Below are positions 27,935 through 64,000 of a stretch of 64,000 nt of DNA, in pieces (positions within the stretch are counted from its first letter, which is position 1; the number at the start of each line of letters is the position of its first letter). The translations under genes and the position numbers were made by a program. The notes under the pieces were generated by a model. That model was given only the letters and a program-made list of their open reading frames with translations, ran no database searches and was not told the origin of the DNA. This DNA is from Porphyra umbilicalis (taxonomy: Eukaryota; Rhodophyta; Bangiophyceae; Bangiales; Bangiaceae): the NCBI GenBank assembly GCA_002049455.2, contig KV919115.1, positions 10,798-74,797 on the forward strand, written 5' to 3'.

Positions 27935-27942
27935 GTACTCAC

Positions 27943-35800: not shown

Positions 35801-35810
35801 GCCGACCGGC

Positions 35811-40100: not shown

Positions 40101-40555
40101 ATGAAGGGGTCGGGGGAGGGGTAGGGGAAGGAGGCGGATGAGACGCGTGACGCGATTTTTTGGGAGAAGAGGGGGAACGGCGTAGCGGGTTGAGGGCGGC
40201 GGGGGATCGCGATGCCGCGACGAGCCCGCATGCCTAGGGGGGGAAGGGGTTCCTCCGCGGGACAGGCAAGCGTCAGAACGGCTCCCCTCGCGTCAGTCGC
40301 CGCCGGGGCAGGTACTGTGAAAGTGTTCATGATTGCGCGTGGGGGCGGGTTACGACGCGTCGAGCGGCGAGCCGCCCCCACTCCGCTGACCGCTGCCCCC
40401 GCCGCTGGCGGCCATTCCTTCCAGTAGCTGCCCCATTGCTGAGCGCCGTCCCCACCGTGGGCCACCCCCCCGCCGCTGGCCGCCTCTCGCTGCTGGCCGT
40501 CACTCTTGACGCTGGTGGCCGCCCCCGCTTCGTTCGCTAAACTGTATCTTACCCA

Positions 40556-40755
40556 CTCTATACACTATTTCTTGCTTCTGAAAGGTGAGATATGTCATAG
40601 GTGGTCTATAGCTACGCTCGTCCGGTTCGAGTGCCGCGGGCTGTCTCGGACTGGTGGCACCTTGCCTGTCCAGTAAAAGCATGAATAATACGTTTTTGCG
40701 CGAAACGGCGCATACCATCGCGACCAGCCCACGTGAGTGCACCAGGTGTGCTTCC
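40556..40755. repeat. Diverged dispersed repeat, copy B
   Basis: This is the second copy of the 38009-38240 repeat (TTTCTTGCTTCTGAAAGGTGAGA...GAAACGGCGCATAC). It directly adjoins the foldback at 40766, so the repeat and foldback may be parts of one element. Confidence 0.6.
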
Positions 40756-40765
40756 TAGCAGGGAG

Positions 40766-41383
40766 TGCGTGTTCTGGTCCTTTTGCTCATCATTTTCTGG
40801 CAAGTGCCCATTTCACCCCCGGAAGAGACAGGCCACCGGACTGGCACGTATGCAGAAAGACGTCCATCCGGACAGCTTCTTCCATGTATAGAGATGCTCA
40901 GAAGAGATGGAGTGCCCTCCAGGAGACAGGTCCATCGCTTTTTTCTTGGAAATAAACATGAGAAGAGCCGTAGGCAGGTGGGAAGCGCGTCTGCGTGTTG
41001 CACTGGATTTTGCAGTGTCAGCTGTTTGCGATCAGCATGCTCTGCATCGACCTCATTGAGCCGCAGATCAGTTGCGACCCCCAGATCGGTTTTGACACTC
41101 GCCAATGCAGAGCATGAGGAGCGCAGCTGACACTTCACAATGCAGTGCAACGCGCGGTCGCGCTTCCCTCCTGCCTGCGGCACTTCTCATGGTTATTTCC
41201 AATAAAAATCGATGGACCTGTCTCCTGGAGGGCACTTCATCTCTTCTGAGCAACTCCATCCATGAAAAAAGCTGTTCGGATGGACGTCTTTCTTCATATA
41301 TGCCAGTCCGATGTCGTGTCTCTCCCGGGGGTGCAATGGACTCTTCCCAGCAAAAGATGAGCAAAACGACCAAAACACACATT
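40766..41383. repeat. Long inverted repeat (foldback), ~280-bp arms
   Basis: The left arm (about 40766-41047) and right arm (about 41105-41383) are reverse complements with scattered mismatches, separated by about 57 bases. For example GAAGAGATGGAGTGCCCTCC in the left arm pairs with GGAGGGCACTTCATCTCTTC in the right. Transcripts would fold into a long hairpin. No gene is supported inside. Confidence 0.9.
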
Positions 41384-43061: not shown

Positions 43062-43066
43062 GCGAC

Positions 43067-43438
43067 TGTTGAGCATGGCTCAGCAATTCCATTTGTCTGT
43101 ACTTACCCGGTTGAGCATTGGGACTCAGTTTTGGGTATTTACCTATGCACTTGTTGTATGTTTTGTACTTGTGTGTACTTGATTTGTTGGTCTCGTAGTG
43201 GGCACTCTCTGCTGGGGTGAGCTCGGGGGGGGGACTTGTGTGGGGAGGTGCATGCCCCGTTCTGGGAGGTGCGCCGCGGCCCGCGCGCACTGAGAACCGA
43301 GGCACGTGGGTGTGCTCCGAGAGCGGGCTGCCCGACGACCTGTCCTGGGGCCGCCTGGGGTACATTAGGTGGCTGGACACGGCCCAGGACCTCTGCCATA
43401 GTAAAACAACGCACCCACTTGACAACACCGACTGCACA
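43067..43438 (+). repeat. 5' LTR of the copia element
   Basis: It starts TGTTGAGCATGG and ends ACTGCACA directly before the primer site. It matches 48657-49029 almost base for base. Confidence 0.93.
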
Positions 43439-43452
43439 GGTTATGGGCCCAG
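43439..43452 (+). promoter_or_regulatory. Half-tRNA primer-binding site (initiator Met type)
   Basis: GGTTATGGGCCCAG, right after the LTR, is the reverse complement of CTGGGCCCATAACC, the anticodon-stem-loop sequence of eukaryotic initiator Met tRNA. It does not match a tRNA 3' end. Drosophila copia and its relatives prime with such an internal tRNA fragment. Confidence 0.85.
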
Positions 43453-43594
43453 TGTCGCTGGTGGTCATCGTCGTCTTCCGTGCCGTTGTTGGCGGGACGA
43501 CCTTGGTTGGGTTGCCGTGTGTTCCGGCGTCGGGCAGGTGGGTATAGCCTCCCACGTCGTCAGTGCCGCGCCTGCTGGCGTGGTTGTCATCGTC

Positions 43595-46500: not shown

Positions 46501-47938
46501 CAAGGACTGGGAAGTTCACCACGTGGATGTGAAGACGGCCTTCCTCAACGCAAAGATGGACAAGGAGATGTACATCAAGCTTCCGGTCGGAGCCGAGCCG
46601 GGGGAGGAAGGTGATGTCCGCCGTCTGAACCTGGCTCTCTATGGGACCAAACAGGCGGGACGATTGTGGGGCATCAAGCTTAACAAAGAGCTCAATGCCA
46701 TCGGAGCGGTCCGGTCCAAGGTGGACCCGTGCCTCTACACGTGGAGCCACCCTGTGCACGGGCTTGTCTACATCCTCGTCTACGTGGACGATCTCATTGT
46801 GGCTGGAAAAAGCCTCGAAGGGGTCCGGATGGTCAAGGCCTCGGTGTCGGCGTCTTTCGACGTGCGCGACATGGGTGAGGTCAAGGACTTCATTGGCATG
46901 AAGGTCATGCGAGATCGGGCTGCCAAGGTGATCACCCTGAGCAATCCGGGGCATGTCAGTTCCCTGCTTGAGGCTTTCCAGATGGACAAGTCTGCGCCTA
47001 ACAAGACGCCCATGGTGGCAGGTGCCAAGCTTTGCAAGACGGGGGAGAATCTACTGCCCGAGGGCAACCGGTACGCCGAGCTTGTTGGCTCGTTGCTGTA
47101 CCTCACCACGACGACGAGGCCAGACATTGCCTTTGCCGTGGGCGTGCTCTCCCGCTACATGTCATGCCCCGAGGAGGACCACATGCGCGCGGCCAAGGGG
47201 GTGCTCCGATATCTTCGCGGGGCTACGCGACTAGGGGTCGTGTACGGCGACGACAAGCCTCTCCAAGGGTACGTTGACGCAGACTGGGCAGGCGATATTG
47301 ACGCTCGTCGGTCGACGACGGGCTTTGTCTTCACCCTCAATGGCGGGCCGATATCGTGGACGAGCAAGCGCCAGTCGACCGTGGCGACGTCAACGGCCGA
47401 GGCCGAGTACGTCGCCGCCGCTATGGCGACCAAGGAGGCGCTGTGGCTGCGCAAACTTCTGTCGGTGCTGGGCGTCGACGGGGACGCCGTGCCCATGGGG
47501 GAGGACAACCAGGCGTGCCTCGCTTTGGTCAACAATCCCGAAGCCACCGGGCGTACCAAGCACGTAGACGTTGCGTACCACATGGTGCGCGACTACGTCG
47601 CGCGTGGGGAGGTTGCCTTCTACTTTCTTCCCAGCGCCGACATGCCCGCAGATGGCATGACGAAGCCACTGCCGGCCCCGGCGTTCACCACATTCCGGGG
47701 CGTCATCGGCGTTGGCTCGGATCTGGGCACTTCGGGGAGTAGCGGCACGCGGGCCCTACGTCCTGCGCCGCAGTGCTCAACCCCCTCGGGGGGGGCGGCG
47801 GTTGGCGGCGGAGTGGCGGTGTCGGCGGCCTGGAACGGCTTCGGGTCGATTGGGCGGTTTACGGCGAAGTCGGGGGCTGGGCTGTATCAGTACAGCCCTC
47901 CTCGGAATCGGGATCCGATTGTCGGCGGGCTGTACTGA
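43595..47938 (+). CDS. gag-pol: Copia gag-pol polyprotein
   Basis: This is a single frame of 1447 residues from the first ATG after the primer site (MSEYGRYAGPRFAQL). Residues 1-200 are the copia Gag (AKEAWDALKDIFEARD...). A CCHC knuckle CYYCDKKGHMKRDC lies at about 225-238. The protease is near 298 (LDSGATNHM). The integrase zinc finger starts near 441 (HRRFNHLGF...CVPC) and the core follows, with YSSQQNGKAERANRY. RT begins near 930 (YKARLVAQGFNQVPG) and has YVDDLIVAG near 1063. RNase H is near 1228 (DADWAGD...STAEAEYVAA). Integrase before RT defines Ty1/copia. The last 90 residues are Gly/Ser-rich and end within the first palindromes of the 3' region. Confidence 0.96.
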   Translation: MSEYGRYAGPRFAQLDDDYKVWAVYCRAQMIKEKVWAAVVTDRPASGSGAKSDVAAEAWDLMNESALATIQMSDKPVHLYSVTAVSTAKEAWDALKDIFEARDNARLLQLMHELSNLKKGSDENIIKYTSRAKGIRQELSMLGNQVDENTLILQILSGLPAEYDMIKTVLENMDGKRNLADVSAKLLTVEQRGSHGRSSSATGVKSQAFAATASKKAWDKRAVVCYYCDKKGHMKRDCLKKKADDAKGNKKPNGGRREGGGGGGAPPRAALAYAASACQAGKLNASGSTSGFSTWVLDSGATNHMAAQDAGFTVKTTGSGAKVTLADGHKVPIKGHGYASMDVGKGIATARMVLDEAMLVPDLTDNLLSVRAVDRCGGAVVFVGDACYILIDGEAVLASGVLSNASVVGSVNESENYVLKVTPVTASARAASTHMDGEAELWHRRFNHLGFENLKRVVGMVDGIPSTVADAKRVPGTVCVPCVDGKMARSPHHRSTTTTTKCELVHTDVDGPLTASLGGSVCFVTLMEDSTGFITATPIKSKGMVPDVLKTRIKQLETLTGLKVKRVRHDGAKEYVSRDLQAWYEDKGITSEKTAPYSSQQNGKAERANRYIMERVRAALLDAGAEEELWAEALSSVIHVLNRSPKAGQDVTPLEALTGRRPDVKGFRVWGSRAWALKPKQQQRKLEPRTDVGRFVGYTVGGKAYRILEDGSNKVFERRDVLMEETSSKAIKMPSVPGPASTPFLTSQTDGDKEDGAMDMLEAEAANGDEYASQQSSESDVEPEEASGLDAEDGDDNDAGEDAADHDGHDVLSGSTTESGDDGVQALRRSKRKPAPKVTWWERNPKAYAAEGPKGGDPSGWDLTKAPANAKEARARSDWPRWKAAEKEEYLAHKKLGTWCNTRSSNKRKAVKTRYVYDIKHDAEGNMTRYKARLVAQGFNQVPGRDFDETWAPVPSSATTRALFAVAAAKDWEVHHVDVKTAFLNAKMDKEMYIKLPVGAEPGEEGDVRRLNLALYGTKQAGRLWGIKLNKELNAIGAVRSKVDPCLYTWSHPVHGLVYILVYVDDLIVAGKSLEGVRMVKASVSASFDVRDMGEVKDFIGMKVMRDRAAKVITLSNPGHVSSLLEAFQMDKSAPNKTPMVAGAKLCKTGENLLPEGNRYAELVGSLLYLTTTTRPDIAFAVGVLSRYMSCPEEDHMRAAKGVLRYLRGATRLGVVYGDDKPLQGYVDADWAGDIDARRSTTGFVFTLNGGPISWTSKRQSTVATSTAEAEYVAAAMATKEALWLRKLLSVLGVDGDAVPMGEDNQACLALVNNPEATGRTKHVDVAYHMVRDYVARGEVAFYFLPSADMPADGMTKPLPAPAFTTFRGVIGVGSDLGTSGSSGTRALRPAPQCSTPSGGAAVGGGVAVSAAWNGFGSIGRFTAKSGAGLYQYSPPRNRDPIVGGLY

Positions 47939-48553
47939 TACAGCCCGAGTCGGATTCGTGCCGAAATTCGTCGATCAAGTCGACGTTTCGCCGATCGAGT
48001 CGGGGGCGGCCGGTCGAATCGATGTCTACCGAACGTTTCGTCGGACGATCCGATCAACATTGGACGACCGCGTCAATTCGATTTTCGGCTGGGCGGTAGC
48101 CGTTACGGCTGTACTGATACAGCTCCAGGCCCTTGCATCGCTACGAAGGCAGCGGCTTGCGTCGCCTTTACGCCGACTGGGTGGCCTGCGGCGGTCGGGC
48201 GGTCGGCTAAGGGCTTCTCCGATGCTGTCCGCGTCGACCGAGGCGGACTTGGCGGACATCGTTGTTTTTTGTTTTAAGTGGCGGGGGAGGGCTGTAATGA
48301 TACAGCCCAGCTTCATGCGTCTCTACCAAGTCGGCGGTTTGCGTCGACTTTGCGGCGGTTGGGCGGCTTGCGGCGGCCTGGCGGTCGGCTGGCGGGTGCT
48401 CTGATGCTGTCCGAGTCGGCGGTTGTCGACTTGGCGGTGGGCGGGTTTTTGGCCCACATCGCGTTTTGCGGCCAAGTCGGGGAGGGGGGGTTCTGTATCA
48501 GTACAGCCCAAAACTAATATGGCTTCCCGAGGAGGGCTGTACTGCTACAGCCC
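47879..48553. repeat. Six dispersed GGGCTGTA-N4-TACAGCCC palindromes
   Basis: Copies lie at 47879-47898, 47927-47946, 48106-48125, 48289-48308, 48491-48509 and 48534-48553. The 8-bp arms are nearly constant, while the 4-base centres differ (TCAG, CTGA, CTGA, ATGA, TCAG, CTGC). The first two are in the end of the gag-pol frame and the others in the untranslated stretch before the 3' LTR. They could form RNA hairpins or bind a dimeric protein. Confidence 0.92.
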
Positions 48554-48648
48554 GGGCCCGAGCAGCGGCGATCGGGAAGCCAAATCAAGCTGTAAGCCGG
48601 AAGCCGGGCTACCTTGCATCCGGACTCCGGAACCGTCACAATGTAATT

Positions 48649-48656
48649 GGGGGGAG
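48649..48656 (+). promoter_or_regulatory. Polypurine tract of the copia element
   Basis: The sequence GGGGGGAG immediately precedes the 3' LTR, as expected for the plus-strand primer. Confidence 0.8.
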
Positions 48657-49029
48657 TGTTGAGCATGGCTCAGCAATTCCATTTGTCTGTACTTACCCGG
48701 TTGAGCATTGGGACTCAGTTTTGGGTATTTACCTATGCACTTGTTGTATGTTTTGTACTTGTGTGTACTTGATTTGTTGGTCTCGTAGTGGGCACTCTCT
48801 GCTGGGGTGAGCTCGGGGGGGGGGACTTGTGTGGGGAGGTGCATGCCTCGTTCTGGGAGGTGCGCCGCGGCCCGCGCGCACTGAGAACTGAGGCACGTGG
48901 GTGTGCTCCGAGAGCGGGCTGCCCGACGACCTGTCCTGGGGCCGCCTGGGGTACATTAGGTGGCTGGACACGGCCCAGGACCTCTGCCATAGTAAAACAA
49001 CGCACCCACTTGACCACACCGACTTCACA
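48657..49029 (+). repeat. 3' LTR of the copia element
   Basis: It is preceded by a GGGGGGAG purine tract and followed by the GCGAC target duplication. It is one base longer than the 5' LTR because of a G-run difference. Confidence 0.93.
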
Positions 49030-49034
49030 GCGAC

Positions 49035-49869
49035 CCCGCCACACACCGTCGGCGCTTTCACCGCGGCGGCTCGGCGCTTCAGCGGCGGCGGCGGGGACGG
49101 CGGCGCGCACCCCGAGCGTCGTGCCCGGCCCGCGGCAAGCAGCCACAGAGTGCTGTGGCGACAGCCGCCACCAATGGACACGAGGCAGCCGCGTCCCGGC
49201 GTGGTTGTGCCAGCCATCGCCCTTCAAACATGGGCAGCGGCACATCTGCCAGTCCGCACACGGGCGTCACGCAGCCCCACACCCCCCCCCCCCCCCTTCC
49301 AGCTCTCACCACCCACCACGCGCTGTCCAACGTCCTCGGGCCGGCAGCAACGTCAACGTTGGCCGCGAGCCGACGACCTGCCGCCGCCGCCGGCCACGAA
49401 GGCGGTCGGCGCGCACCGGGGACGCGCGGGCGCCGACGCGCTCAGGCCGCGCGGTTTGTGGCGGCCTCCGCGATGGTAACGCCCACCCCCCCAGTTGTTA
49501 CCGGCGGCGGCGGGGCCATGTCCCACCAGTTCGCGCCGCCGCACCCGTGGTCGTCGCCCCGAGGTGGCTGCCCATGAGCGTGGCGCAAGCCGTGACGCGG
49601 CTGCGGAGCCACCACGGCTGCCCTCCGACCACTTGATGGCCGCCCCGCGCGCCAACGACGCCGGTCGGCGACGTCAAAGTGGGGGGAGGTCTCGGGGTGG
49701 CCGCCGCGTCGGCCAGCGGCGCCGCCACGCCGCACTCGCCAGCCGCCGTGGGCCGAGGGTGTGAGAGCCCGCGCGAAAGGGCAGCGGGCAGGTGCCGGCC
49801 ATGTTTCCCAAAGCAACCACGTTGTAGAGCACACAAGTTCCTGCCCTACCGACTACCCGTGCTTCTTGA
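49035..49869. other. GC-rich tract, no supported gene
   Basis: This continues the GC-rich DNA left of the copia insertion. It includes a C-run at about 49287-49301. The overlapping Arg/Ala/Pro frames are not supported. Confidence 0.45.
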
Positions 49870-52800
49870 CTAATCTTCACCGGCTCCACCACCTGGCTCT
49901 TGGCCCGCACCACCCCCCTGCCCTTCAAGATAGCCACTCTCCCGCCCCGCATCTTTGACACCACTCTCTTGTTCGTTCTCGCCAACTCCTTGCTCACCGT
50001 GCTCGCCTCCGCCATCACCTCTACGCCCACCACCACCACACTCACCGACGTCGGCGCGCACTCCCGGCGGCGCAGGCGCATCGTCTGTGCGATGATTGCT
50101 TCGGTCGGCGACGGTCCCAGCCTTGTAAGCGCGCATTTTGTCCAGCTCTGGGACAAAGGCAAGCAGCTTGTCCAGCCACAGCTGCCAAGGCACGCGTACA
50201 GACGGCTTTCTCTTGCCAGCCGCGGTCGTCGTGACCTCCCGCTTGGCCTCCTTGTCCTTCCAGTCGGGGTCCGCCCACGCAACGTCCCACAGGTGCAGGA
50301 TGTACACACGTTCCTTCTCCTTGTTGTCGACGCCCGGTTTGCCCATGGCCACTTGGCGTAGCTCGTCGTAAACCCGGTCCTCCGGCTTACCGTTCCCCCC
50401 CCAGCGAAATGAAGACAGCATTATACGCAACGACTCCGTGCTGGTGATCTTTATCGTCTCGGAGATGACGTCGGGGCGGATTTTGTCAACGTCGGACCAG
50501 ATGTCTTGCTCCGCGTCGTACTCCTCTATGAGGATGCGCGCGGCGACCATCATCCGCCTCCAGGTAGGGTCTTGCTTGTTCGGGTAGACCTTGTTGACGA
50601 CTGCCTCCTTCTTGGCGCCGCTGCCTTGACAAACGCTTTTCCGGGGTGAGCGCGCCGCGGCGATGCCGCCTCCGCCCCCCTTCAGAGTAGGGGCATCTGG
50701 CGTGCTTGGTGGTGGCGCGACCTAGCTTGCCGAGGACGGTTTGACCGTCAAGGCGGTCTTGACGCTCGCCGCCCCAGGAACCGCAGATGGCGAGGACTTG
50801 GCGACGCCCAGCAGAGCTACAACGGTAGCATCAGGAGCCGCCGAGTCCGGCAGCTCATGGTTGAACTTAGCGTACAGGAGGTAGATGACGGTGAGCAAGT
50901 TGGAGATGAGGAACGGACCCACCTTCCAGATCTCCCCGTTGATGCCCGCCGGTAGCGCGTCACGCAAGACGTCCAGGAACCACGGCTCCAGCCCCCTCTT
51001 GGTCGCCGGTGGCGAGTGGACCGAGCGACCAGCCGCAAAGTTGACCAAGTAGTACGGCCACACGTCGGCCTGGACGAGGACAGAGAACAGTTGGTAGCGG
51101 GGAGTGGCGTCGAAGACGCCACACACAAAAGCAAACAGCCGAGCCCATCTGCTTCCCGGAGTCTGGGAGACAGGAGCGATGACAGGGACGGCCGGGGGGG
51201 TCACCCAGGCTGCAGCGCCCGCCCCTCCGCCCATAGGCAAATCGTTGCCGGCAGCCGCGTGAAGTGGCGGCGGCGGTGACGGCGCTGCGGTAGCGTCCGA
51301 AGAGGCCCCGTAGCGGGACCCAGGCAGCTCGAGTTGGGGGCCACCGCCAGCCTGCGGGTGCCAGGCACTGCCGTCAGGGACCGCCGGCGGCCCACGAGGT
51401 GCGCCGCGCCAGACCGTTTGACCAGCTTTTCGGGCGGCCGCGCTGAGCTCAGCAGCGGCCGCGTCGTCCGCCTCCGACCACTTTGGGTGCAAGGCCGCTG
51501 CCTTCTCTTCTTCTGCGGCCTCACGCTCGGCCGCCGCTGTTAGCGCCAGCGCCGCCACCACCACCTGCTCGTCGGCGGCCTTGCGGTCGACGGCGGCCTT
51601 GCGCGCGAGCGCCGCCGCCGCTTCTTGCTCCTTCGCGGCCTTGCTGTCGACATCGGCCTTGCGCGCAAGCGCCGCCGCCTCCTGCTCGTCGGCAGCCTTG
51701 CGGTCGGCGGCGTCCTTGTGCTCCAGCGCCGCCGCCGACTCCTGCTCTTCGGCGGCCTTGCGGTCGGCCGCAGCCTTGCGTGCGAGCGCCGCCGCCGCCT
51801 CCTGCTCGTCGGCATCCTTGCGGCCGGCGGCGACTTTGCGCGCGAGCGCCGCCGCCGCCTCCTGCTCGTCGGCGGCCTTGCAGTCGGCGGCGGCGTTGCG
51901 CGCGAGCGCCGCCGCCGCTCTCTGTTCTTCGGCGGCCTTGCGGTCGGCGGCGGCCTTGTGCTCCAGCGCCGCCGCCGCGTCCTTCTCGTCGGCGGCCTTG
52001 CAGGCGGCGGCGGCGTTGCGTGCGAGCGCCGCCGCCGCCTCCTGCTCGTCGGCGGCCTTGCAGTCGGCGGCGACCTTCTGCTCCAGCTTCGCCGCCGCTT
52101 CCTGGTGGTCGGCGGTCTTGCGGTCGGCGGCATCCTTGTGCTTCAGCGCCGCCGCCCCTTCCTGATGGGCGACGGCCTTGCGGTCGTCTGCGGCCTTGCG
52201 GTCTATCGTGGCCGCCGCCTCCCGCTCGTCAGCGGCCTTGATGTCGTCGGCGGCCTTGCGCTCCAGCGTCGCGGCCGCCTTCTGCTCATGGGCGGCCTTG
52301 CGGTTGATGGCGGCCTTCCGCTCAAGCGCCGCCGTCGCCTTCTGCTCGTCGGCGGTCTTGCGGTCGGCGGCGGCCTTGCGCTTGAGCGCCGCCGCCGACT
52401 CGTGCTTGTCGGTGGCCTTGCGCGCGGCCGTGGCGCCGCGCACAACCACCCTTGCCGCCTCCTGGTCGTCCGCGGCCTTGCTACAGGCCGAAGCTTCACG
52501 CTCGCGCTTCCTCCCGGCTCCGGCCTTGCCGGTGCTTTCCTTCACGCCGCTTGCTGCTTCGTTCGCGATTTGGCGGCGCCGCTTCTTCTTGCCTAGCCGT
52601 CGCGAGGGCTGCCTGTCGCCCGCGACGGCCAGGAGCTTGTCTTTTTCAGCGGCCAAGCGTCGCTCGAGGTCGACGTTGTCCTCCGCAACTGTCGCCTCAG
52701 CCGCGGCGATGGCTTCGTGCATTGGGTTGCGGGCAGGCGCCGAGGCCTGGGAGGCAGCCCGAGTCCAAGCGCTGCTGTTTTGCGGTGAGACCCGTTCGTT

Positions 52801-52962
52801 GGCGGTAGCGCCGCCAGGGCGTCCGTCCGACGCCAATTTGGCCAGCGTGGCGCGCTTGGAGCGCGGAGAGGATGGGACATTGGAAGAACCTGTAGCCGGT
52901 GCACAGTCGCCGGCGTTGTCGACGGTGCGCTTAGTGCGCGGCTTGCGCTTGTTGCCGCCCAT
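49870..52962 (-). CDS. Unknown Ala-rich repeat protein, amber-separated C-terminal region
   Basis: From ATG at 52962 a minus-strand frame runs 746 codons to TAG at 50722-50724, then stays open in the same frame for 283 more codons to 49870. The N-terminal 200 residues are basic with KKKRRR. Next come about 15 copies of a 20-residue repeat near KAAADRKAADEQEAAAALAR, predicted as long helix or coiled coil. A Pro/Gly linker and a hydrophobic C-terminal part (VGPFLISNLLTVIYLLYAKF) follow. The continuation begins with basic sequence, then DPTWRRMMVAARILIEEYDAEQ and RVPWQLWLDKLLAF, balanced and domain-like. A short intron containing the TAG, read-through, or a single nonsense change could explain this. 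No family is recognised. Confidence 0.6.
51540..52480. repeat. 60-bp coding minisatellite, ~15 copies
   Basis: In-frame 60-bp units on the minus strand encode the 20-residue repeats of the preceding gene. Spacing is regular apart from one unit lacking a codon. The plus strand is also open here because of the codon bias, giving Ser/Ala/Arg shadow frames. Confidence 0.92.
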
Positions 52963-53007
52963 CTACGAAGAAAAGGCCAATGCAGTCGCACAATCGGTGT
53001 TGCACAC

Positions 53008-53610
53008 GAAAGGACAGCAAAAAGTAAGGGAGTTTCAACGTTAGGCTACAGTGCTCCTCGTGCCTTGACGCCGATCAAGAGTATGCCCCTGCCCCTCGTG
53101 TACCAAATCAGACAAGACCACCAACACGCGAAAAACCAAGTCACAAGATCGAGCTGCAGTCATACCGTTGGAACACAGAACGACGCGGCGGGGCTTGTAG
53201 CCAGATTCAGGCACACCATCAACACCAACAGCGAGCAGCCCCACCCCGCAGCCAATGGTGTCGGCCGCAGAGTGTACCACTGCGCCTCGCACACCAGCAC
53301 AGGCACATTACATGAAAGGGCAGCAAAGAGCATGGGAGTTTCAAAGTTAGACTACAGTGCTCCGCGTGCCTCGATGCCCATCAAGAGTATGCCTCTGCCC
53401 CTCGTGTACCAAACCAGACAATACCACCAACACGCGAAAAACCAAGTCACAAGATCGAGGTACATCCGTACCGTTGGTAAAGAGAACCACGCAGCCCGGC
53501 ATGTAGCCAGAGCGTGGCAATAGAGCAGCGACAAGCTCTGCCGCGCAGCGAGTAGTGACGGCAGCCGACCGTAGCACTGCGCCCAGCGCACCAACACGGG
53601 CACAGGTCCA
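53008..53610. repeat. Tandem duplication, ~306-bp unit, upstream of the repeat-protein gene
   Basis: Copy 1 (about 53008-53313) and copy 2 (about 53314-53610) share GGGAGTTTCAA.GTTAG.CTACAGTGCTCC, ATCAAGAGTATGCC and CGCGAAAAACCAAGTCACAAGATCGAG in separate blocks. The array begins 45 bases upstream of the start codon at 52962, where the promoter of that minus-strand gene should lie. Confidence 0.9.
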
Positions 53611-54925
53611 GCGCAACTGTGAAGGATGCACAGACACTGACAGCAACAACAACAGACGCGATTGCCTCCCAGACGCGAACGGAGGTCGATGCGTGCGAGA
53701 TGAGTGCGCCATGCCTTGTCGGGTGCGTGGCCCACTTCGTGACAGCATGCGGTCCGCAATCGAATCGTTACCATGTGACCGGGCTCCCAATGTCTGCAAT
53801 GATGACGACACCTGACGTAGAGACATCTGTCAAATGATGCGGCTAGATTTAGTCGAAGTTGTACGACATATAATGATCTAGTTACTAGATGATAGGGCTG
53901 CTTACCATATCAGAAAAATACCGTCTGTCGCATTTTGACTCTTACCTCGGGTCGTATCTGATGCAGGGGCCAACATATTCGACCGTCACGTGCACCGTGA
54001 ACAATGAAGCTAGCGTGTGCATTTGGTAAGGATGGGGTGGCTGTGGACGGCGCCATGTGGACACATCGGTGCGGCCACCCGCGACGCTGGGGCGGACCGG
54101 GGGGTCAACGGACGTGGCGGACCGGGGCGTGACGGGACTGGGCGGGGAACGTCGCCGCCGCCGCCTCGACAGCGGGCACGCGTCTCTGTGTGGGGTGGAA
54201 TGGTCGGCGGCAGTGCCCTCTGTGGCGCGAGCGGGCTGGGTATGCAGGCGGCCGTGGCAGCGCTGGAAGGGTCCGGCGGACAGCCGCCAGCCACAGCCAC
54301 ATTAGCCACCAGGTGGAGCGGTCGGCTCCAGCTTGGCGGCTGCCGTGCTCCACGAACCTCGCTGGCGCACCGTCGCCTCTGCCGCCACCGCCGCTGTCAA
54401 TGCACACTGTCGACCGTTCCGCTCTGCACGGACACCTCGACGTCTGGCGGCTGCTCGGCGAATGCGACCGGCCGGTGGCGTGGGCCGGCTGTCGCGCGGG
54501 GCCCCCGTCTTCATCTGACGCCTTTCGTGCAATGTTTTGTAGTAGGCTGGTGGGGGGCGGGACGGGTGCGGCGGCTGCGGTGTGGCGTCCGGCGGCAGCG
54601 CGAATCGCCCATCTGAGTGGTGTATGTGCCTCTTACGAAGTACTGGCGGGTTGCGTCGTTGGGTGTGGTTAGGCGCGGGGCCGGGCTGAGAACGGTGTGC
54701 CTCCATGCCGCCCGTTTGCAGGCGGCGGGTGGCAGCTGCGTCAGCGGATGCGCTGGCCGCATGTGCTTGCTTTTGTGGCCCATGTTTGTTCTGTGGGCCG
54801 CTTCAGCGCTGAGCGCGTGTCGGACGGACGCCTAGAATGAAATTGGTGCTCAGGAAGCTCTTTTCATGCCTCGCAGAGTGGCGATTCATTACTCACAAGT
54901 AAATGAGCCCGTCTGTTTTTTGCAT
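53611..54925. other. Intergenic, no supported gene
   Basis: About 54030-54640 is GC-rich with frames open on both strands. The AT-richer part near 53830-54000 holds nothing I recognise. Confidence 0.45.
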
Positions 54926-55897
54926 CTACGATCCACGCAACATGACAGAGCAAAATGTGTGCACCTCGTCATATCCAAACCACTGTCCTCGCCCATCCTG
55001 CTTCACGCGCTCCACGCGAAGCTGGTCACGGAGTGCTGCCCACCCACCGGCTCTGCTCGCAGCCTTGGCAATTGCTCGGCGCTTGGCGAGCATGGAAGAA
55101 GATGCCCGTCCAAAATGCTGCTTCTTGTCCAGCTCGCGTCGTTCAGGCTGGCCGTGTTGAAGCTTTTTGAGCGCGATGGTGGAACCAACACCTACTTCCC
55201 AAGACCGCTCGACGACATCCATCATAAGCTCCCAGTCACGGGGGAGCCGCTCCGTTGCAATTGGCTTAACACGGATCTACGGGGCAGCGGATGAGCTCTA
55301 CTTACGAGGATGAACGCTGCAAGTGCACGAAGAACAACCGCTAGCACTGGTGACCATAGACGGTGGCAAGTTCCCTGCGGGCAGCGCGCTTGACCGCATC
55401 GGCTGGGACCTTGCCGCCTCGAGAATCGGTTGCCCAAAAGAAGCACTGGCAAGAACCGAGGCCGACTGAACGAACTGGGCGGCCAAACCCACGGAGGCAG
55501 CGCCTCGGCGATGGGCTTCTTTGATGTTCTTGAGCCGGGCCTCGATGGAGTTGCAAAGCGCGCGGACCGGCGCAAATATTTGTTGCTGCCGTCGACCAGC
55601 AACGAGAGCGTGCGCGAGACGCAAATGACCGTCAATGTTGTCAGGAAGAGTACGCGGTACAAAAGCACGGTTCAACGGGTCCACGGCAGCAGCAATCCCG
55701 ACGACGAGCTTGTCTTGGGTTGGATGGCGGGCTTCATCTCGTGCAGTTCGCCCTTCCGATGCACGGGCCGCGGCATCTGCTTCCAGCAAAGGAGGGCGGG
55801 CAGCTGTCGGAGGAAGAGCCATCAGACGACCCGGAATTCTGACTTGTTCACGACAGAGACTGCTAGTGACACGTCCGAGGTTGGCGAGGCAAAGCAA
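54926..55897 (-). CDS. Unknown two-block gene
   Basis: Two minus-strand blocks have balanced composition. The first (55897 down to about 55305) includes GLAAQFVQSASVLASASFG and EARLKNIKEAHRRG. The second (about 55225 to 54926) includes GWAALRDQLRVERVKQDGRGQWFGYDEV and a Lys/Arg-rich helix. At the end of the first block a consensus donor GTAAGTAG lies at about 55304, so a short intron is likely, though I could not fix the acceptor. I recognise no family. The gene is oriented away from the recombinase gene and may be a divergent neighbour or part of the same element. Confidence 0.4.
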
Positions 55898-55939
55898 GAT
55901 GTCGGTACCGTCCTGCGGGCCAAGGAAAACCCCCGATAA

Positions 55940-57065
55940 GAGACGAGTTTTGCTTCCATATGGTCCTAGCCGTTATGGTCAGAAACCGCATGTGGACGCG
56001 CGTCGCAATTGTGGCCCACTGATGTCATATTGCACGCGTGTCGTGATTATCGAGGGAGAGAAGTACATCGCCTTTTCAATCGCTTAAGTAAATTGAGAAT
56101 CCGGTACGGGATAACGCCATCCCGTCACCGAATTGAAGACATAATCGGGTAGGTAATTGTATTTGTCTGGGCGTATCTTGTCCGTCGCGCACAACACGTC
56201 CCGACGGCTAATCGGATCTGCGCAGCAACAGCCCGCTGAGAGTTGCTGATCCGGTGGCCCGATCCAGTCCCTGGTTTGTTGGCCCGGTGGGCCAGGCTGC
56301 CGCAGTCGACGCTTGTCGAACGCCGATCCGAGCTCCTGACGCGCCCACCTTTGGAGTCAGCCGCCCCAACTCGTGTCTCATCATCGTTTTTGATTTTCTC
56401 TGCTTACATACACACACTGTGCCTCACTGTCCGGCCCCCTGAAGTGTACTGGAGATCGATTCTCTACGACGTGCACAGCCTGGTCGTCAGCAGCCGCGGG
56501 GACTCGTCTTTGCGACCAGTCGCTTTCGAGGAGCTCTACATATTTTGGTTTTTTTATCGTGGCGCACTCTCCTTATACCTCATGGTCTCGTCCCTGCTGA
56601 CCAATCCTGCCCCACCGGCGTGCCCTCCATTTTATGTATCGGCGCCCGGTGATGGCATCGCAGTCAGGAAGGCGGACGAATCGGCGCGGACTGCTCCACC
56701 CGTGTTGCGCGTTGTGAGCGGATACGCTGTACGGGCCCATCCTCCGCAATCATGTAGCGTGCTTTTGGCAGCTTGTACGCGACAAGGTGCTGGGACCCTG
56801 CTCGGAGAATGAGGGGAAGCAACCGCTTCTTGCTTATGACGCTGTTCCTCAAAGTCTTCCCTGCTACTTGTAGTCCTCTTTTTCATCTGCGTGCGCGACT
56901 TGGCTGTTGACGAGCTGACTAACACTAAGAATGTGCTATCGTGCTTGATGCTTTGTCAGTGGATTTCTTTTTCTTTGTGCGCTGTGGGCTTGTGCCTGGT
57001 CTTGTGCGGATCAGACATGGGATGCGGTATTTTCTTCGAGCTTCGCTGCTGCCAACAGGGCCTCC
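55940..57065. other. Intergenic, lower GC, nothing recognised
   Basis: GC drops compared with the left part of the window. Only short frames occur. A 24-base direct repeat (CAACAGGGC.TCCGTGCAACC) sits at 57053-57100, at the border of the next ORF. Confidence 0.4.
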
Positions 57066-57401
57066 GTGCAACCCGGCAACAGGGCGTCCGTGCAACCCGA
57101 CGTACGACAAGGGTACCGCATTCTTGTCCAACGAAAGAGACGTTTTAACATGGTGATGCAATATTCGAGAAGGCCCCGACGCATTGATGTTGCGAAGTTC
57201 TTTGGAGCTGGCGATTCTCGAGCCACGTTGTTTGTCAATGCCACAGACAGGCGGGAAGATTACATCGCTTGTTTTTCCGTACAAACGATATTCCAGTACA
57301 ACACAAAAGATCCAGTCACAAGGTTCGTAAATACATACGACTGCAAAGCGAAACCTCGTAGGTCATTCGCCAAGATTTTCGAGGAGGCTGCATGCGGATA
57401 A
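57066..57401 (+). CDS. Unknown small ORF upstream of the recombinase
   Basis: This 111-codon frame has balanced composition (VAKFFGAGDSRATLFVNATDRREDYIACF...). It is on the recombinase strand and ends 154 bases before its ATG. It could be an upstream exon or a separate small gene. No family is recognised. Confidence 0.3.
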   Translation: MQPGNRASVQPDVRQGYRILVQRKRRFNMVMQYSRRPRRIDVAKFFGAGDSRATLFVNATDRREDYIACFSVQTIFQYNTKDPVTRFVNTYDCKAKPRRSFAKIFEEAACG

Positions 57402-57554
57402 TTTGTCAGCACGCGCACGAATCATGTTCCCACGTCATGGTGCGAGGTGTCTTGATTATGCGGATCATTTCCACTCGCTGCGGCGTGCACTCTCGCTGCA
57501 CGCACGCTCTCATCTGGCAGGCAGGCCCGCGCGTCGACATCGGCTGTGAGCAGA

Positions 57555-58981
57555 ATGTCATCTGCGGCTTCCGTGGATCGCGGTTCGTCGCGGCTTTCCG
57601 GCTTACAAGATGGCCGCACGAGCGCAGCTCGGAGCGTGGCGTTGTTAAGTCTTGCACCCTCGGCCAACACGTATGATCCTGTGGCTTCTACAGCGGCCGT
57701 TGTTGAGACGCCTCGCTCACAAAGCAGCTCGGAGGTACACAAGCGCACCCGGAAGGAATACTTCGAGTATTGCGCAAAGGTCGGCGTTGATCCGTTCAAG
57801 GTGAACGAAACCACTGCGGCGCACGTCGCCACGTTCTACAAGGCCCGCACCAAGAACTTCGAGTTCGGTACGTCGACTTCCAAGCATGTGTCTGCCCAGA
57901 TGACATTGTTTTTTACTGAGCTAGGTTGCACTGGTCGTTGGACGACGGGCGAGATCGACGGAAAGGTGTTTTTCGACGGCAACCTGAACGACAGCAAGGC
58001 TGTCGAGGACATGAAGCGAGCTCATAAGGTCAAGCTCGCTCGCGATGGACGCGTGACACTTCCAATGGACCCACTGGAGTACGGGCACATCTGTGCCTAC
58101 TACGACCACTTCATTTTCGACCAAGACCACGTCTCCCCGCGGATTTTGTCGCAGTTTGCCGCCATGATGACGGCCACCTTTCTTCTTATGCGCTTTGACG
58201 AGGTGACCAAGATCAAGTCCGTAGATGAGAGTTCACGCCGAGTGCGCGACCAATCCATCTTTGCGCCTGTCCGAGCCGAGGCCTCGTCATTTGTACTCGG
58301 CTTGTCCCGATCTGATCTTCACGGGCACTGATACTCACCAGCTTGAGCTCATTTGTCCGAATGCGGTTCTTGTTTGGAACGTATTGTATACACGGCGCTT
58401 TGTGACGCAGGCGAGAAGACGTCCTGCAGACGGAGGACGTGCGAGGTAACCTGGTGTTTCGCATCAACATCCTTGACGGAACGAAGACGTCAACGTCAGG
58501 CCGACGGTACTACCTTGAAGGTGGGCCTGGTTTGGTGGGGGACCCCCGCATGGATCCTGTTCTGGCTTTGGCCATGTACCTGATGGTTCGTGGAGATGCC
58601 GACGGCTTCTTGTTCTGTCCATTTCACGCTCTGCCGTCTGTGGGTTGGGAGATGTCGGTTCACATCAAGCTCAAGGACAACGTCTTTGTCGAGTCCTTGC
58701 GCCATTCGCTTGATGAAGCTGATGTGGACTCGTACAAGTTGTTGGGGACCCATTCCTGTAAGCGTGGAGGTGTCCAGCTTTATCGTCTTCTGGGTGTGGC
58801 CGATGCGGAGATCAAGGAACGCGGTGATTGGTATACCATGGCCGCGTACTGGGCCTACGTCCAAGCATCTAATCGGCTTGAAAAGCGCTTTACGTACACG
58901 TCTCCGGTGGCGGCGCTGGCAGATGTAATTGTCAATGGTGGAGAGGTGCCCGAGTGCGTGCATCGGAGTTTGGAGAGGTGA
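57555..58981 (+). CDS. Tyrosine recombinase, two exons (Crypton-like)
   Basis: Exon 1 is 57555-58220 and exon 2 is 58430-58981. The 209-base intron starts GTAGAT and ends CTGCAG and joins in frame to give 405 residues. Residues about 50-200 look like the SAM-like N-terminal DNA-binding part (RTRKEYFEYCAKVGVDPF...). The catalytic part has Arg213 in FLLMRFDEV, the beta-strand lysine region after TEDVRGNLVFRI, the box HSCKRGG (His330, Arg334), GDW at 354-356 (Trp in place of the second His) and Tyr362 or Tyr365 in AAYWAYVQ as nucleophile. HxxxR with GxW is the pattern of Crypton and related eukaryotic YR transposases. The start at 57555 is the first ATG in the frame. A RecQ gene follows 434 bases downstream. 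Confidence 0.75.
58221..58429 (+). other. Intron of the recombinase gene
   Basis: Inferred from the break in open frame. The donor is TCC|GTAGAT, the acceptor is TCCTGCAG|ACG, phase 0. The joined sequence reads TKIKSTEDVRGNLVF, which fits the spacing between catalytic Arg and the following strands in this family. Confidence 0.65.
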
Positions 58982-59577
58982 GGAGCTAGTCACAACGCCC
59001 GGTTCAGCATGATTGCCTACTGCCAAGAAATGGTGTCGATCTTCTCTTTGCTTTGTACGATGATTCTTGTTCGAACAGCATCGTGTGATGGTAGAACATT
59101 GGTTGCGACATGGTCATCATGCCTTCTCTATTTCCTTGTGCATACTTTCCAGTCGTGAGATGGTCACGCGCTCTGATGCGCGCTGAAAATACATGTAGGC
59201 ATGTATACGTGATATTGAACTGGTACGGTACGCTGCTTTGTGGTTACCAGACCACGCCATAACGTAACGCGAGTATCGCGTTCAAAGAGAGGGCTCGCGC
59301 GGATGCCAAATTCGACAGCTGGGGCCTTCGTAAAGATACTTGAGGGGCGGTGCCGTGCGGCCGCGGCCAGCCCTGCACGTCGTGCACGAGGTCAGCGACA
59401 CACTCGTGCGTAGCCATGGAGCGATCCGATGTCGAGGCAGCCGCTCTGGACACCCTCGACCATAAGTTTGCCCATGCAAGCTTCCGGGCTGGACAGCTTG
59501 AAGCTATCATTCCACTTCTCGAACAGGACCGTGATGGGGCGGACGTCCTGTCTGTGATTGCCACGGCATCGGGCAAG

Positions 59578-59745
59578 GTATGCTACATCTCGTCTTTGGG
59601 CGGAGTCCGTGCTACTCGTTCTGGTTCTCGTTCAGCGTATGTGGCATGTGCGGCAGCGACCGTCGCATTTATTTTTCTTTTTGTCATTGCCCTGATAAGA
59701 TTGATTCTGCTAGCTATTGCCGTCGTTCTCCTGCTCCATCTGTAG
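59578..59745 (+). other. Intron 1 of the RecQ-like gene
   Basis: The sequence GGCAAG|GTATGC...CATCTGTAG|ACGACT interrupts Walker A between Lys and Thr. Splicing restores GKTT, which strongly supports the call. Confidence 0.8.
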
Positions 59746-60615
59746 ACGACTATCTTTGGTGTTGCTGCTACCCTGCTCTATGAGCGACGCAAGGCTTTAA
59801 GCGTTATGCTGGTCCCTCTGAAGGGCCTTGACCGTCAGCACGCGGACATGATGACAAAGGCTGGCGTGCCGGCATTGGCACTTTCTTCTTCTAGCATGAC
59901 GGCGGAGTGAGCGCGCTGCAAAACGATGATCAACGAGAAGGCTCGGTGCGCGCTCTTCATCTCTCCAGAGGTCTTGTGCCACAACCCGAGCTTCGTCAAG
60001 CTGTTGAACGAGCACAACATCGCTCTTCTTTGCTTCGACGGAGCTCATCTCAACGACTGGTACCTTTGGAGGCCCACCATGTCAATGGCGGCATCCTTGG
60101 TGAGCGCTCAACGCCGCCTGGGTCTGACGGCCACCATGCGTCGTCGGGACCAGCAGCTGGTCGTTAGGCGCACAGGGATATCTGCCCCCATCGTGCAGCG
60201 TGGACGCTTCCTCCGGTCAAATCTGCTTCTTTAAGTCATCAAGCGGCCGGCTGCCCTGACGTTTGGCCAGGCGTCACTGGCGGACCAACTTTCGGCCGCC
60301 ACTGAGGCCAAATGGCGGATTGCACGCACTCTTCTTATGGCCATCAAGGCTCGGTCACTCCAAGGGAACACCATCGTTTATGTGCCTTCACGTGCACAGG
60401 CAGAGACAGTTTGCAAGCAGCTGGTGCAGGCAGCCAAGGACCAGAATTTGGTTGCTGTAGGGGCGGCGCTCAAATTTCGCCCTTATCATGCAGGCCGTAC
60501 GGACCGTTCCGAGGTCGAACAGCTGTTCTTGTCCCAGCGCGGAGTCGTCGTGGTCGTGACGACTGCGTTTGGTCTCGGCGTAGACTGCGCCCACGTCCGC
60601 GTGATCATCCATTTC

Positions 60616-60852
60616 GTACGTTGTTGGTACTTTGCTCACCTGTTCTGGTCACCATGTTCTATACTTGTAACCATCTTAGCCGGATTTCTCGTGCTTCGCA
60701 CGGGCTGCCAGCTTGATGTCCGGTCTTGAACAGCGACGTGGACAGCTCGAGCTCACCATCTTTTTCGTTATATGCGTGCGCTTCTCTTGGCGTATCTTCT
60801 TTTTTCTCTTGTGTTGTTTTTCACACGTGGCCTCTATGTACGTCTGATTCAG
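60616..60852 (+). other. Intron 2 of the RecQ-like gene
   Basis: The sequence ATTTC|GTACGT...CTGATTCAG|TCAGGG joins VIIHF to SGARSLAEYAQQVGRGGRD, reproducing the spacing of RecQ helicases (HF....S...Y.Q..GR.GRD). Confidence 0.75.
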
Positions 60853-61919
60853 TCAGGGGCGAGGTCCTTGGCTGAGTACGCTCAGCAAGTCGGCCGCGGC
60901 GGACGTGACTGTGAAGACCCTTACTGCTTGTGCTTCTACAATCCAAGCGACAGCCAAGGGATCCGGCGCAGCATCGAGTCGGCGGTTTTAACGACGTCGA
61001 CGACGACTGCCCTCTTGCGCAAGGTAGCAGTGCGCACAACCGAACGCGGCCCAACTTCATTTTTACATTGGACCGACTTCCACAGGGCTGGCATCGACGA
61101 CGACAACACGGATGCCGTCTTAGCCGCGCTCTGCCGCACAGGCTCGGCGCTAGCAGGTAAGCGACAACTCGCGCGCATCTTGGCAATGAAGGGCCCAAAG
61201 TGGACCATTCAGCCGCTCCCCGCGTTGTCCAGGTTTGCTCTAGCGCTGAGGAAGGATCGCTTTCAGGCCGCGTTCGCTTCGGGCAAGCTCAATGTGGCTG
61301 TTCGATGTGATGTGCGAGACGTGTGCACGGTGCCACCCTTTCTGGAGATGGTCGCAGGTGGGCCCACGGTGGTTCACTACGCGCTGGAGGACCTGGCTGC
61401 TGCAAAACTCGTCGACATCGACTATAGTGATGACTACCCGTTGGTTCAACCCCTGGCAGTGCTCGATCGCCAAGATGCGCGAGCTGCTGGGCGGCTGCTT
61501 TCCAAGTCCATGAAGTCGGCTGCGGCGCAGAAGCTCGCTGTGCTTGACAAAGCCCTCGACTTCATGGAAGCTGATGGGTGCCTTCAACGTCGGCTTTGTG
61601 ACGTTTTCGGTGCACCTGATGATTTGGACGCTGCTGTTGAGTCCTGTCGTTGCGGTATGTGCGAGCCCGCGACGATTGGAGCCGGTTTTGCTTGACCTCT
61701 GGGTTGCTTCATGAGACGTGACCTTGGCGTGTGCCCGCGTGATGTGGGCGCCACCTCTTTCTTGAGTCTGTCGGTGCCACTGAAAGGAACCCTGCGGGTG
61801 TTTTGCGGCAACGTGTTTTAGATACTTCTAGGTGCTACAGCAACCTTGCTTTTTTGTCCCATCCCCATGAGCACGGTCTCAAATGAGCTGTGCGTGTGTT
61901 CTTGCTTTGTTTTGCTCCG

Positions 61920-63290
61920 TGCCTTTTTGTTGCAGGGTCCGCATGCATGCGCACGATGTTACGTCTTGCGATTTATGGGTACCAAAGTAGGACGTGCATG
62001 ATTCATCAAACTGGGTATGTGTGGTCACGGAGTTCCAGTTTGATTACGGTATAACAGGTCTCATATATTGTCACATGTCGCTTGACAGTTTCAGAGAGAT
62101 GTTTTCCCACCGTGTTTGTCAACACGGTGCTGCGATCCGGCCGCTCTCTTCGTGCACATCCCGCCTTTTTCTTCGTTGCGCACTACTCGTGTACAGGTCC
62201 TTTTAGACGCTTTCGTCGTTCCGCATGCAAAACTTTGCTCAGACAGGCACCAAGATCGTGCCATGTACTTTGGAACACCCTAGAGGTCGTCAAACCCCGC
62301 GTCAGTGACCATGTCATCACCGATGCGCGCTTCAGCGAAGACGAAGAACAGATGCCAGCTTCAGCGGAGACGACGAAAAAACATTGTGAGCCCGGAAATA
62401 GCTCTTCGGCTTCAGCATGTTGCATAACACTCTCTTTCTTTCGTGTACTTACATGTCAAGGGAGGCGGACGTGGTGTAGAGGCTGAGGGGTTGTGCGCAT
62501 GCCGGCTACAAACTATGGCTTACTGACCGACTGTTACGGTGGAAGCGCCACGTTGCTCGTGAATGCCTTGCGGGCGAGCACCCTGCGCTGATGACTTCAC
62601 TTCGTGTTGGATGGCTTTGGCATGCGACAACGCGCGTGCTTGTGAGCACGCAGACACCAGGGAAAGCACGTTTTGGTGCTCCCGCTGAGCCCAGCACTCA
62701 GCCCCCCAGAAGGCAGGCTGTTCCGAATGAGAAAGAGAGGCGTTCGCCTAGCCCTAGTGAGACACCCGCATACGCGAATCGCGCAGCGGGCGCAAGGCTG
62801 AGCGCGGATGAGCTTGCTTTAGCGACGCGTTTATTTTTGGTGTCTTTTTTCCTGGCTTTTGACCGCCAGATGTGGTTGTTACCTCTTGCTTTAATCTGTC
62901 TGTGCTGTGCCATCTACAAGAATGTTGTTGCAGGGTCCGCATGCATGCCCACGACGGTGCTTCTTGTTTTTCAAGGCTACTAGATTACGATGGACAGGAT
63001 TGACAAAACTGTGTACGTCTAGTCCTTTTATGTAGCTTCATGTACCATATGACGAGTCTTTTCTCACATGTTGCTTGGTAGCCTAAGAGAGCTGTTTTGT
63101 TGTCTTGTTTGCCGAGACGCCGCTAGAACACCGCCGCTCGTCTCATGCGTGTCTCGTCTTGGCCTCTTTTTCGCACCAGTCGTGCAGAGGTATTTTTAAA
63201 CGCTTTCGTCTCTGTGCATGCGAAGCTACGCTCAGACGGTCCTCAAGAACGCGCCATGGACATTGCATCCCACTTATGGCCGTTGCGCCC
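61920..63290. repeat. Diverged ~1-kb tandem duplication downstream of RecQ
   Basis: Copy 1 (about 61920-62280) and copy 2 (about 62920-63290) share TTGTTGCAGGGTCCGCATGCATG, then a TCACATGT(C/T)GCTTG block, then ACGCTTTCGTC...GCATGC(A/G)A, GCTCAGAC and GTGCCATG-like blocks in the same order, about 1 kb apart. The DNA between them (62290-62915) has no clear second copy. No gene is supported. They could be terminal or subterminal repeats of the recombinase-helicase element. Confidence 0.7.
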
Positions 63291-64000
63291 CTAAATCGGG
63301 CGACAGCTACCGGGCCCAGCGCGGTCGAGCCTATCGGTGAGACGCCATTTTTCAACGCCCTCGGTAGAGCGACCGAGACCACCGTGCGCGCGCGCGCTTT
63401 CATATGGCCGCAAGAACACAACAGCAGAGTACCACGTCTGTGTGGTGCTGGTCCGCTCAGGAACGAATGCCAGCGTGCGTGCCTGCGGCGGCAGGCCCCG
63501 CCGCCCCGCCAGCGTCGACGCGGCGGAGGCCGCCCCCCCCCCCACTGGCCGGACGGGGGCCACGTACGGCTGCCGTTACGAGCAAATAGAGGGGTGGCCG
63601 CCTGTGTCTGCGCACGCGTGCACCCCGATGGGTGCGCGTCGCGCGTGTGTGTAGGGCGCCGCCGCCATTTTGAGAGGCAAGGCGCCGGCGGCGCGTTTTA
63701 CGCGGGAGGTCGGCCGGCCAGTGCGGGCAGCGTGCTTTCAACGCACACGTGCCATGCTCGGAACACCAATTGCAGCTGCGCGACATATGCTTTCAAGCTC
63801 CGCACGTGAAGTCAAGTCATGAATAGTTCCGAAAGAAGTGCACGAGCACCGTCCTAATGGGCCGCGTATCCGGCCAGCTGGCTGCCTAATACATGCGATC
63901 GACTGATCCGACTGAGCGATTACGTGCGATCAAGCTGGTTAAGAGGTCGATCACATGCCTGGTAATCCGCGATCGGCCAGATTGACGCCGCCAGGGCACC
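63291..64000. other. Intergenic to window end, no supported gene
   Basis: GC-rich to about 63720, with Arg/Ala frames on both strands. The last 200 bases are rich in CGATC words (GCGATCGACTGATC, GTGCGATCAAG, GTCGATCACATG) without a clear period. Confidence 0.4.

What the first reader, a model, noticed from the sequence alone, without database searches (positions are those of the whole stretch)
57555..61695. Tyrosine recombinase and RecQ helicase as a co-oriented gene pair
Seen: two spliced genes on one strand, 434 bases apart, with small GT-AG introns, in DNA of lower GC than the left half. The first has the R...H..KR...GxW...Y pattern of Crypton-type transposases. The second has motifs 0 to VI and the zinc region of RecQ. 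Known: canonical Cryptons encode only the recombinase. Inference: this is a YR DNA transposon that carries its own RecQ, perhaps to process recombination intermediates or replicate.
Basis: partly seen in the sequence, partly recalled or inferred. Interest (0 to 1): 0.88.

Follow-up and report, generated by a model that had tools for sequence, protein, structure and literature searches.

The report
Large jumping element carrying RecQ helicase
The two genes belong to a large mobile DNA element, present in many copies in this eukaryote's genome, that appears to move with a recombinase and carries a RecQ DNA helicase and two further proteins of unknown type, a combination we did not find described.

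Summary
Confirmed and enlarged. The window holds a two-exon recombinase (YR, 57555-58981) and, 434 bases on, a three-exon RecQ (59416-61695). They lie at the right end of one mobile element running from 20188 to 70 bases past the window (64070): 43.9 kb, about 25.4 kb without two nested LTR retrotransposons. Twelve copies (11 sites) end at one right-hand nucleotide; six share the left end. There are no terminal inverted repeats; both ends carry a CAGNTA-like core, and one copy's right end meets its target at CAGTTA inside the terminal repeat of a ~690-bp repeat family. Of 27 loci of the YR clade, 22 have RecQ downstream on the same strand, 24 gene B upstream on the other strand, 19 gene A; of 18 distant YR loci none has RecQ or B. 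The set persists between families about 50-57% identical in YR. Against: RecQ carries stops in all nine family I copies seen, this one included; it is open in five copies of other families. YR identity rests on motifs and one weak profile match; structure prediction failed. It works like a Crypton but has a larger fixed gene set; what RecQ does is inferred.

The parts
20188..64000 (.). whole mobile element; the right end lies 70 bases beyond the window at coordinate 64070; 43.9 kb with nested retrotransposons, about 25.4 kb without them
   Evidence: shared right end in 12 copies, shared left end in six
20187..20200 (+). left terminus CAGTTATCCTTGCG (element from about 20188)
   Evidence: alignment of six copies
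20760..21308 (.). 181-bp tandem repeats just inside the left end
21309..33847 (.). Gypsy-type LTR retrotransposon nested in the element (LTRs 21309-21992 and 33164-33847; 5-bp target duplication CCGGC), itself holding an insert at about 29439-31537
36285..37352 (-). Ulp1-like C48 peptidase ORF in the left arm (family I)
   Evidence: Pfam PF02902 1.2e-4 here, 5.6e-6 in copy C177
43067..49029 (+). Copia-type LTR retrotransposon nested in the element (target duplication GCGAC)
50047..52962 (-). gene A: long protein with coiled-coil-like repeats and a conserved C-terminal part (50080-51162); one stop in this copy; no Pfam family found for copies C177 and C84
54929..55939 (-). gene B: conserved protein of about 330 aa; two stops in this copy; no Pfam family found for the family II copy
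57555..58216 (+). YR exon 1 (includes the first catalytic Arg)
58411..58981 (+). YR exon 2 (K, H..KR, W, Y)
59416..59577 (+). RecQ exon 1 (motifs 0 and I)
59746..60615 (+). RecQ exon 2 (motifs Ia to V); two in-frame stops in this copy
60853..61695 (+). RecQ exon 3 (motif VI, about 200 aa of unknown type, zinc-like cysteines)
63796..64000 (.). right terminal region, conserved between families I and II; it ends at 64070

Best explanation
This is one decayed copy of a large DNA transposon that moves by tyrosine-recombinase site-specific recombination and carries a fixed gene set: A and B leftward, YR and RecQ rightward. Shown: many copies, shared ends, no terminal inverted repeats, a CAGNTA-like core at both ends, one right junction that meets its target at CAGTTA, and long conservation of the four genes together. 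Inferred: YR joins the two ends into a circle and recombines it with a CAGNTA-like target, sometimes within the terminal repeat of small repeat families. The left core stays the element's own (AGTTA) while the right core varies, as expected if the target supplies it. RecQ most likely works on the element's own DNA, unwinding or migrating recombination intermediates or helping the circle or the excised gap to be copied, so that the element gains copies. A and B may bind the ends or regulate the reaction.
For: Multi-copy gene set (tallied): RecQ 22 of 27, B 24 of 27, A 19 of 27 in the clade; 0 of 18 for RecQ and B at distant YR loci. One shared right end in 12 copies (11 sites) of two families; left end in six copies. 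No inverted similarity between the ends beyond 11 bp. Target: the right flank of C84 is the terminal repeat of a ~690-bp family, entered at CAGTTA (to within a base or two, since both sides read CCCAGTTA); the left flanks of C177 and C119 end CACGCCT before AGTTA, like such repeats, and the C70 right flank is a related repeat. dN/dS between families I and II: 0.04-0.05 (YR) and 0.12-0.14 (RecQ). YR and RecQ trees recover the same families. A database protein, P0008, joins YR exon 2 to a RecQ piece.
Against: YR is not recognised by Pfam, NCBIfam or PDB profiles; structure models failed (pLDDT 33 and 54) and the top fold match, an integrase, is not significant (E 0.23). RecQ has one or two stops in all nine family I copies seen, while YR is open in six of nine (partly on partial sequences); dN/dS within families is 0.19-0.66, as in decaying copies. 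Five of 27 clade loci lack a RecQ row (one of them, C110, has a RecQ exon 1), and the C10 row is 66 aa long at 14 kb. Only four of 11 right-end sites show a link to the repeat families. No complete empty site with both junctions was obtained. No circle, transcript or movement was observed. Gene A is inverted in C46, C29 and C92. The left end of family II was not found, and gene A regions of C84 and C108 differ strongly.
Confidence: 0.7

Rival explanations
1. RecQ, A and B are passenger cargo: YR alone moves the element and RecQ has no part in transposition. (This rival shares the YR-transposon part of the best explanation.)
For: Known Cryptons are described with YR alone (PMC3212892, passages); RecQ has stops in all nine family I copies seen, YR is open in six of nine; five of 27 clade loci show no RecQ row.
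Against: RecQ stays in the same place and strand in families only about 50-57% identical in YR, is under purifying selection between families and is open in five copies of other families (C108, C41, C46, C77, C411); cargo usually varies.
Confidence: 0.25
2. A subtelomeric or segmental repeat that carries a RecQ, like fungal telomere-linked helicases, spread by ordinary recombination.
For: RecQ genes in subtelomeric repeats are known in fungi (PMC4522978, passages); C48 and C275 copies start about 650 bases from contig starts; C355 and C439 share flanks.
Against: YR lies more than 5 kb from both contig ends in 17 of the 20 loci whose contig length was listed, though contigs are not chromosomes; flanks differ from copy to copy while the right end is exact; one copy sits inside a repeat family's terminal repeat.
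Confidence: 0.05
3. A DDE-type DNA transposon of the Academ or Kolobok kind, whose transposase is gene A or B, with YR and RecQ as accessories.
For: RecQ is known in Academ (PMC3627910, passages) and KolobokH (PMC9587614, passages); A and B have no assigned family.
Against: No terminal inverted repeats and no target-site duplication seen; 12 right ends share a CAGNTA-type core (11 of 12 with TA) as expected of YR.
Confidence: 0.07
4. An integrated DNA virus or polinton-like virus with a YR integrase.
For: Size of about 25 kb; YR integrases occur in polinton-like viruses (PMC12220804, passages); an Ulp1-like peptidase is present.
Against: No capsid, packaging ATPase or DNA polymerase match among the ORFs scanned (not every ORF was scanned); no relative of YR, A or RecQ in viral contigs by single-protein scans.
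Confidence: 0.03

Closest known systems
Crypton YR DNA transposons (CryptonF, S, A, I)
   Same: YR with R-H-R-Y type residues; no terminal inverted repeats; short terminal direct repeats (4 or 6 bp in the literature, CAGNTA-like here); one oomycete group of CryptonF also carries a C48/Ulp1 peptidase (PMC3212892, passages)
   Different: about 25 kb with conserved RecQ, A and B; none of these is described for Cryptons in the passages read; YR is not matched by Pfam models
Starship elements (fungi)
   Same: large elements moved by a YR; some captain families insert into other transposons (PMC12134995, passages)
   Different: YR is not at the 5' end of the element and shows no DUF3435 match; a fixed small gene set instead of variable cargo; the host is not known to be a fungus
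Academ / AcademH and KolobokH transposons
   Same: DNA transposons carrying a RecQ or other helicase (PMC3627910 and PMC9587614, passages; AcademH seen only as a cited title)
   Different: those use DDE transposases and terminal inverted repeats (for Academ recalled); this has YR and no inverted repeats
Telomere-linked RecQ helicases of fungi
   Same: multi-copy RecQ in repeats (PMC4522978, passages)
   Different: no YR described there; tightly linked to telomeres

Membership tests
Crypton | tyrosine recombinase with R, H, R, Y residues | tested here: met
   residues conserved across families and in 27 aligned database proteins where covered; but only 1 of 11 members matches an integrase profile, at 8e-4
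Crypton | no terminal inverted repeats and no target-site duplication | tested here: met
   best inverted match 11 bp, off the ends; flanks of copies with both ends read share only the core; no full empty site seen
Crypton | short terminal direct repeats | tested here: met
   left (N)AGTTA in five of six, right CAGNTA in 11 of 12
Crypton | YR is the only conserved gene (rarely plus C48 peptidase) | tested here: not met
   RecQ, A and B conserved with YR
Crypton | YR groups with Crypton YRs in a tree | not tested
   no reference Crypton sequences were at hand
Starship | DUF3435 captain at the 5' end | tested here: not met
   no such Pfam match in 11 members; YR lies in the right part of the element
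Academ/Kolobok | DDE transposase and terminal inverted repeats | tested here: not met
   no inverted repeats; no DDE match in the ORFs assigned to the element that were scanned; rve matches lie in LTR retrotransposons
DIRS/Ngaro YR retrotransposons | reverse transcriptase with YR | tested here: not met
   among ORFs scanned, RT domains lie only in nested or flanking LTR elements
RecQ helicase | helicase motifs 0 to VI and match to RecQ | tested here: met
   motif II is altered in this copy

The most novel reading that the evidence does not exclude
A new superfamily of tyrosine-recombinase DNA transposons in which a dedicated RecQ helicase, together with two new proteins, is part of the transposition machinery, perhaps turning cut-and-paste circle recombination into copying, with integration aimed in part at the terminal repeats of other transposons.
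Probability: 0.4. Interest if true: 0.85.

Novelty: new variant of a known kind. Interest (0 to 1): 0.7.

Why it matters
How YR DNA transposons without a replicase raise their copy number is, to our knowledge, unclear. A YR element that keeps its own RecQ across deeply split families, with exact ends and a candidate target core, makes that question testable. It would also show RecQ recruited by a YR transposon, beside the DDE transposons in which it was known.

Tried and rejected
Structure prediction of YR: an environmental protein with three rows gave pLDDT 33 and exon 2 with 28 rows gave 54. The fold search ranked an integrase first, but at E 0.23 and TM 0.23: not counted as evidence. The profile search of the PDB with the YR alignment found nothing. 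Relatives in viral contigs: none for YR, A or RecQ, with single-protein patterns only. The left end of family II was sought in C84 and C108 and not found. The host species was not identified; one haptophyte, Tisochrysis lutea, was looked at because its assembly size is close (82 Mb, 193 contigs; passages), but nothing links it to this genome. In the YR tree the distant group attaches inside family I, which we take as an artefact of aligning to one query; the RecQ tree is unrooted and has only three outside RecQs. By chance, 39 RecQ rows in 83.8 Mb would put one in a given 16-kb stretch about 0.7% of the time (arithmetic). Rows left out of the tally: 3 of the 39 RecQ rows (42-residue pieces of copies already listed) and 10 of the 61 rows (nine short pieces of genes already listed, one weak lone row on C84 some 35 kb away); all 50 YR rows were used.

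Full report
What is there. The window is part of contig C355 of an unnamed assembly of 83.8 Mb in 665 contigs, taken as eukaryotic from its introns and retrotransposons. The YR gene has exons 57555-58216 and 58411-58981 (410 aa). RecQ has exons 59416-59577, 59746-60615 and 60853-61695. All three introns are GT..AG. The YR donor sits at the matching place in copies of families I, II and III. RecQ is certain by Pfam and by its PDB match 1oyw, 2.8e-27. YR is assigned by residues: R213, K, H335..K-R339, W361 and Y are conserved across families. Only 1 of 11 members matches an integrase profile, at 8e-4; Pfam, NCBIfam and PDB searches gave nothing useful, and structure prediction failed.

Copies. 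YR exon 1 gave 50 matches in the genome, which cluster to 45 loci. Twenty-seven of these are at 43% identity or more. Of them 22 have RecQ downstream on the same strand, usually at 1.5-5 kb (11-14 kb in C119, C70 and C10; the C10 match is only 66 aa). Twenty-four of 27 have gene B upstream on the opposite strand and 19 of 27 have gene A beyond it (the few short rows left out are named under Tried and rejected). The other 18 loci, at 22-29% identity, have no RecQ or B match (0 of 18). Twelve RecQ rows have no YR match within 20 kb. Three families are clear: I (window, C429, C75 twice, C383, C177, C119, C70, C181), II (C84, C108, C41, C48, C275) and III (C77, C411, C1, C110), with C46 and C123 as further branches.

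Ends. DNA similarity runs far beyond the gene pair. On the right, 12 copies of two families stop at one nucleotide, window coordinate 64070, after ...CTAACCCCCAG-NTA; C355 and C439 share their flank and are one site, so there are 11 sites. On the left, six copies start at about 20188 with AGTTATCCTTGCG; C145 has lost its last bases. No inverted repeat joins the ends. In this copy a Gypsy element (21309-33847, duplication CCGGC) and a Copia element (43067-49029, duplication GCGAC) are nested; without them the element is about 25.4 kb. C177:104892-131830, 26.9 kb, is the most compact of the four copies with both ends located (C355, C177, C383, C119).

Target. The right flank of C84 belongs to a repeat family of about 690 bp; one search gives 43 rows (40 of 59 candidates scored), about 40 places. 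Its terminal inverted repeats begin CACGCCCAGTTAAG. In the seven unoccupied copies read, six run CACGCC-CAGTTA-AGACACC and one CTCGCC; in C84 the element's right end takes the place of CACGCC and the repeat continues from CAGTTA, to within a base or two. The C70 right flank is a related repeat. The left flanks of C177 and C119 end CACGCCT before AGTTA, like another such repeat. The other seven sites, including this copy's, show no such link. The right core varies (TTA, ATA, GTA; TTC once), whereas the left core is AGTTA in five of six copies. We read this as the element supplying the left core and the target the right one.

Gene content. Gene A (984-aa ORF in C177, 1133-aa ORF in C84) has coiled-coil-like repeats and a conserved C-terminal part, 69% identical between families I and II; gene B is 61% identical. 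Pfam found no family for A in either copy or for B of C84. Family I also has an Ulp1-like C48 peptidase in the left arm. dN/dS between families I and II is about 0.05 for YR and 0.12 for RecQ; within families it is 0.19-0.66. Synonymous change between families is near saturation, so these are rough. Relatives of YR (15 proteins, 30) and of A (4) occur in public genomes and metagenomes; one, P0008, joins YR exon 2 to a RecQ piece.

State of the copies. In this copy YR is open; RecQ has two in-frame stops and FDGAH instead of FDEAH; A has one stop and B two. The other aligned copies lack these particular RecQ stops, but over aligned columns RecQ has one or two stops in all nine family I copies seen, and none in C108, C41, C46, C77 and C411; YR has no stop in 15 of 20 copies, six of nine in family I. 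This copy is probably not autonomous, and family I as a whole looks old or dependent on other copies.

Mechanism. Shown: many copies with exact ends, a shared core, and a long-kept gene set. Inferred: circle formation by YR and integration at CAGNTA; RecQ acting on the element's own intermediates or replication; A and B as helpers.

Known or new. The Crypton survey describes YR elements, in one oomycete group with C48 peptidase, with 4- or 6-bp terminal repeats; 'helicase' does not occur in its main text (PMC3212892, passages). RecQ is reported in Academ and KolobokH transposons (PMC3627910 and PMC9587614, passages). Searches of the open library for YR with RecQ, Crypton with RecQ, Crypton with algae or haptophytes, telomere-linked RecQ, Starship with helicase, and Crypton with Ulp1 and helicase listed no title or abstract start describing such an element; we saw passages of eight of the listed papers and no whole text, and subscription papers and Repbase are not covered, so this is not proof of novelty. 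We call it a new variant of YR DNA transposons that works like a Crypton but fails the single-gene criterion.

Noticed in passing
43067-49029: Copia-type element; the 17 matching places scored elsewhere in the genome are 98-99% identical (only 17 of 1645 candidates scored), so it is probably recently active.
   Followed up: partly
29439-31537: A multi-copy insert nested inside the Gypsy element.
   Followed up: no
L076-L082, near 1494-2183: A ~690-bp repeat family with terminal inverted repeats CACGCCCAGTTAAG and about 40 places; other repeats with the same terminal start occur too.
   Followed up: partly
L067-L070 and other loci: A second group of 18 distant YR loci (22-29% identity) without RecQ or gene B matches: another YR group in the same genome.
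   Followed up: partly
L071, L072, L073: Three RecQ loci (C7, C11, C103) close to each other, with no YR match nearby; perhaps host paralogues or another transposon.
   Followed up: partly
20760-21308: 181-bp tandem repeats next to the left end, with differing copy number among copies.
   Followed up: no
1926-6544: Gypsy-type pol and gag pieces left of the element.
   Followed up: no
L066 and L083: Gene A regions of family II copies C84 and C108 differ much more than their RecQ and right ends, which suggests exchange of modules.
   Followed up: partly
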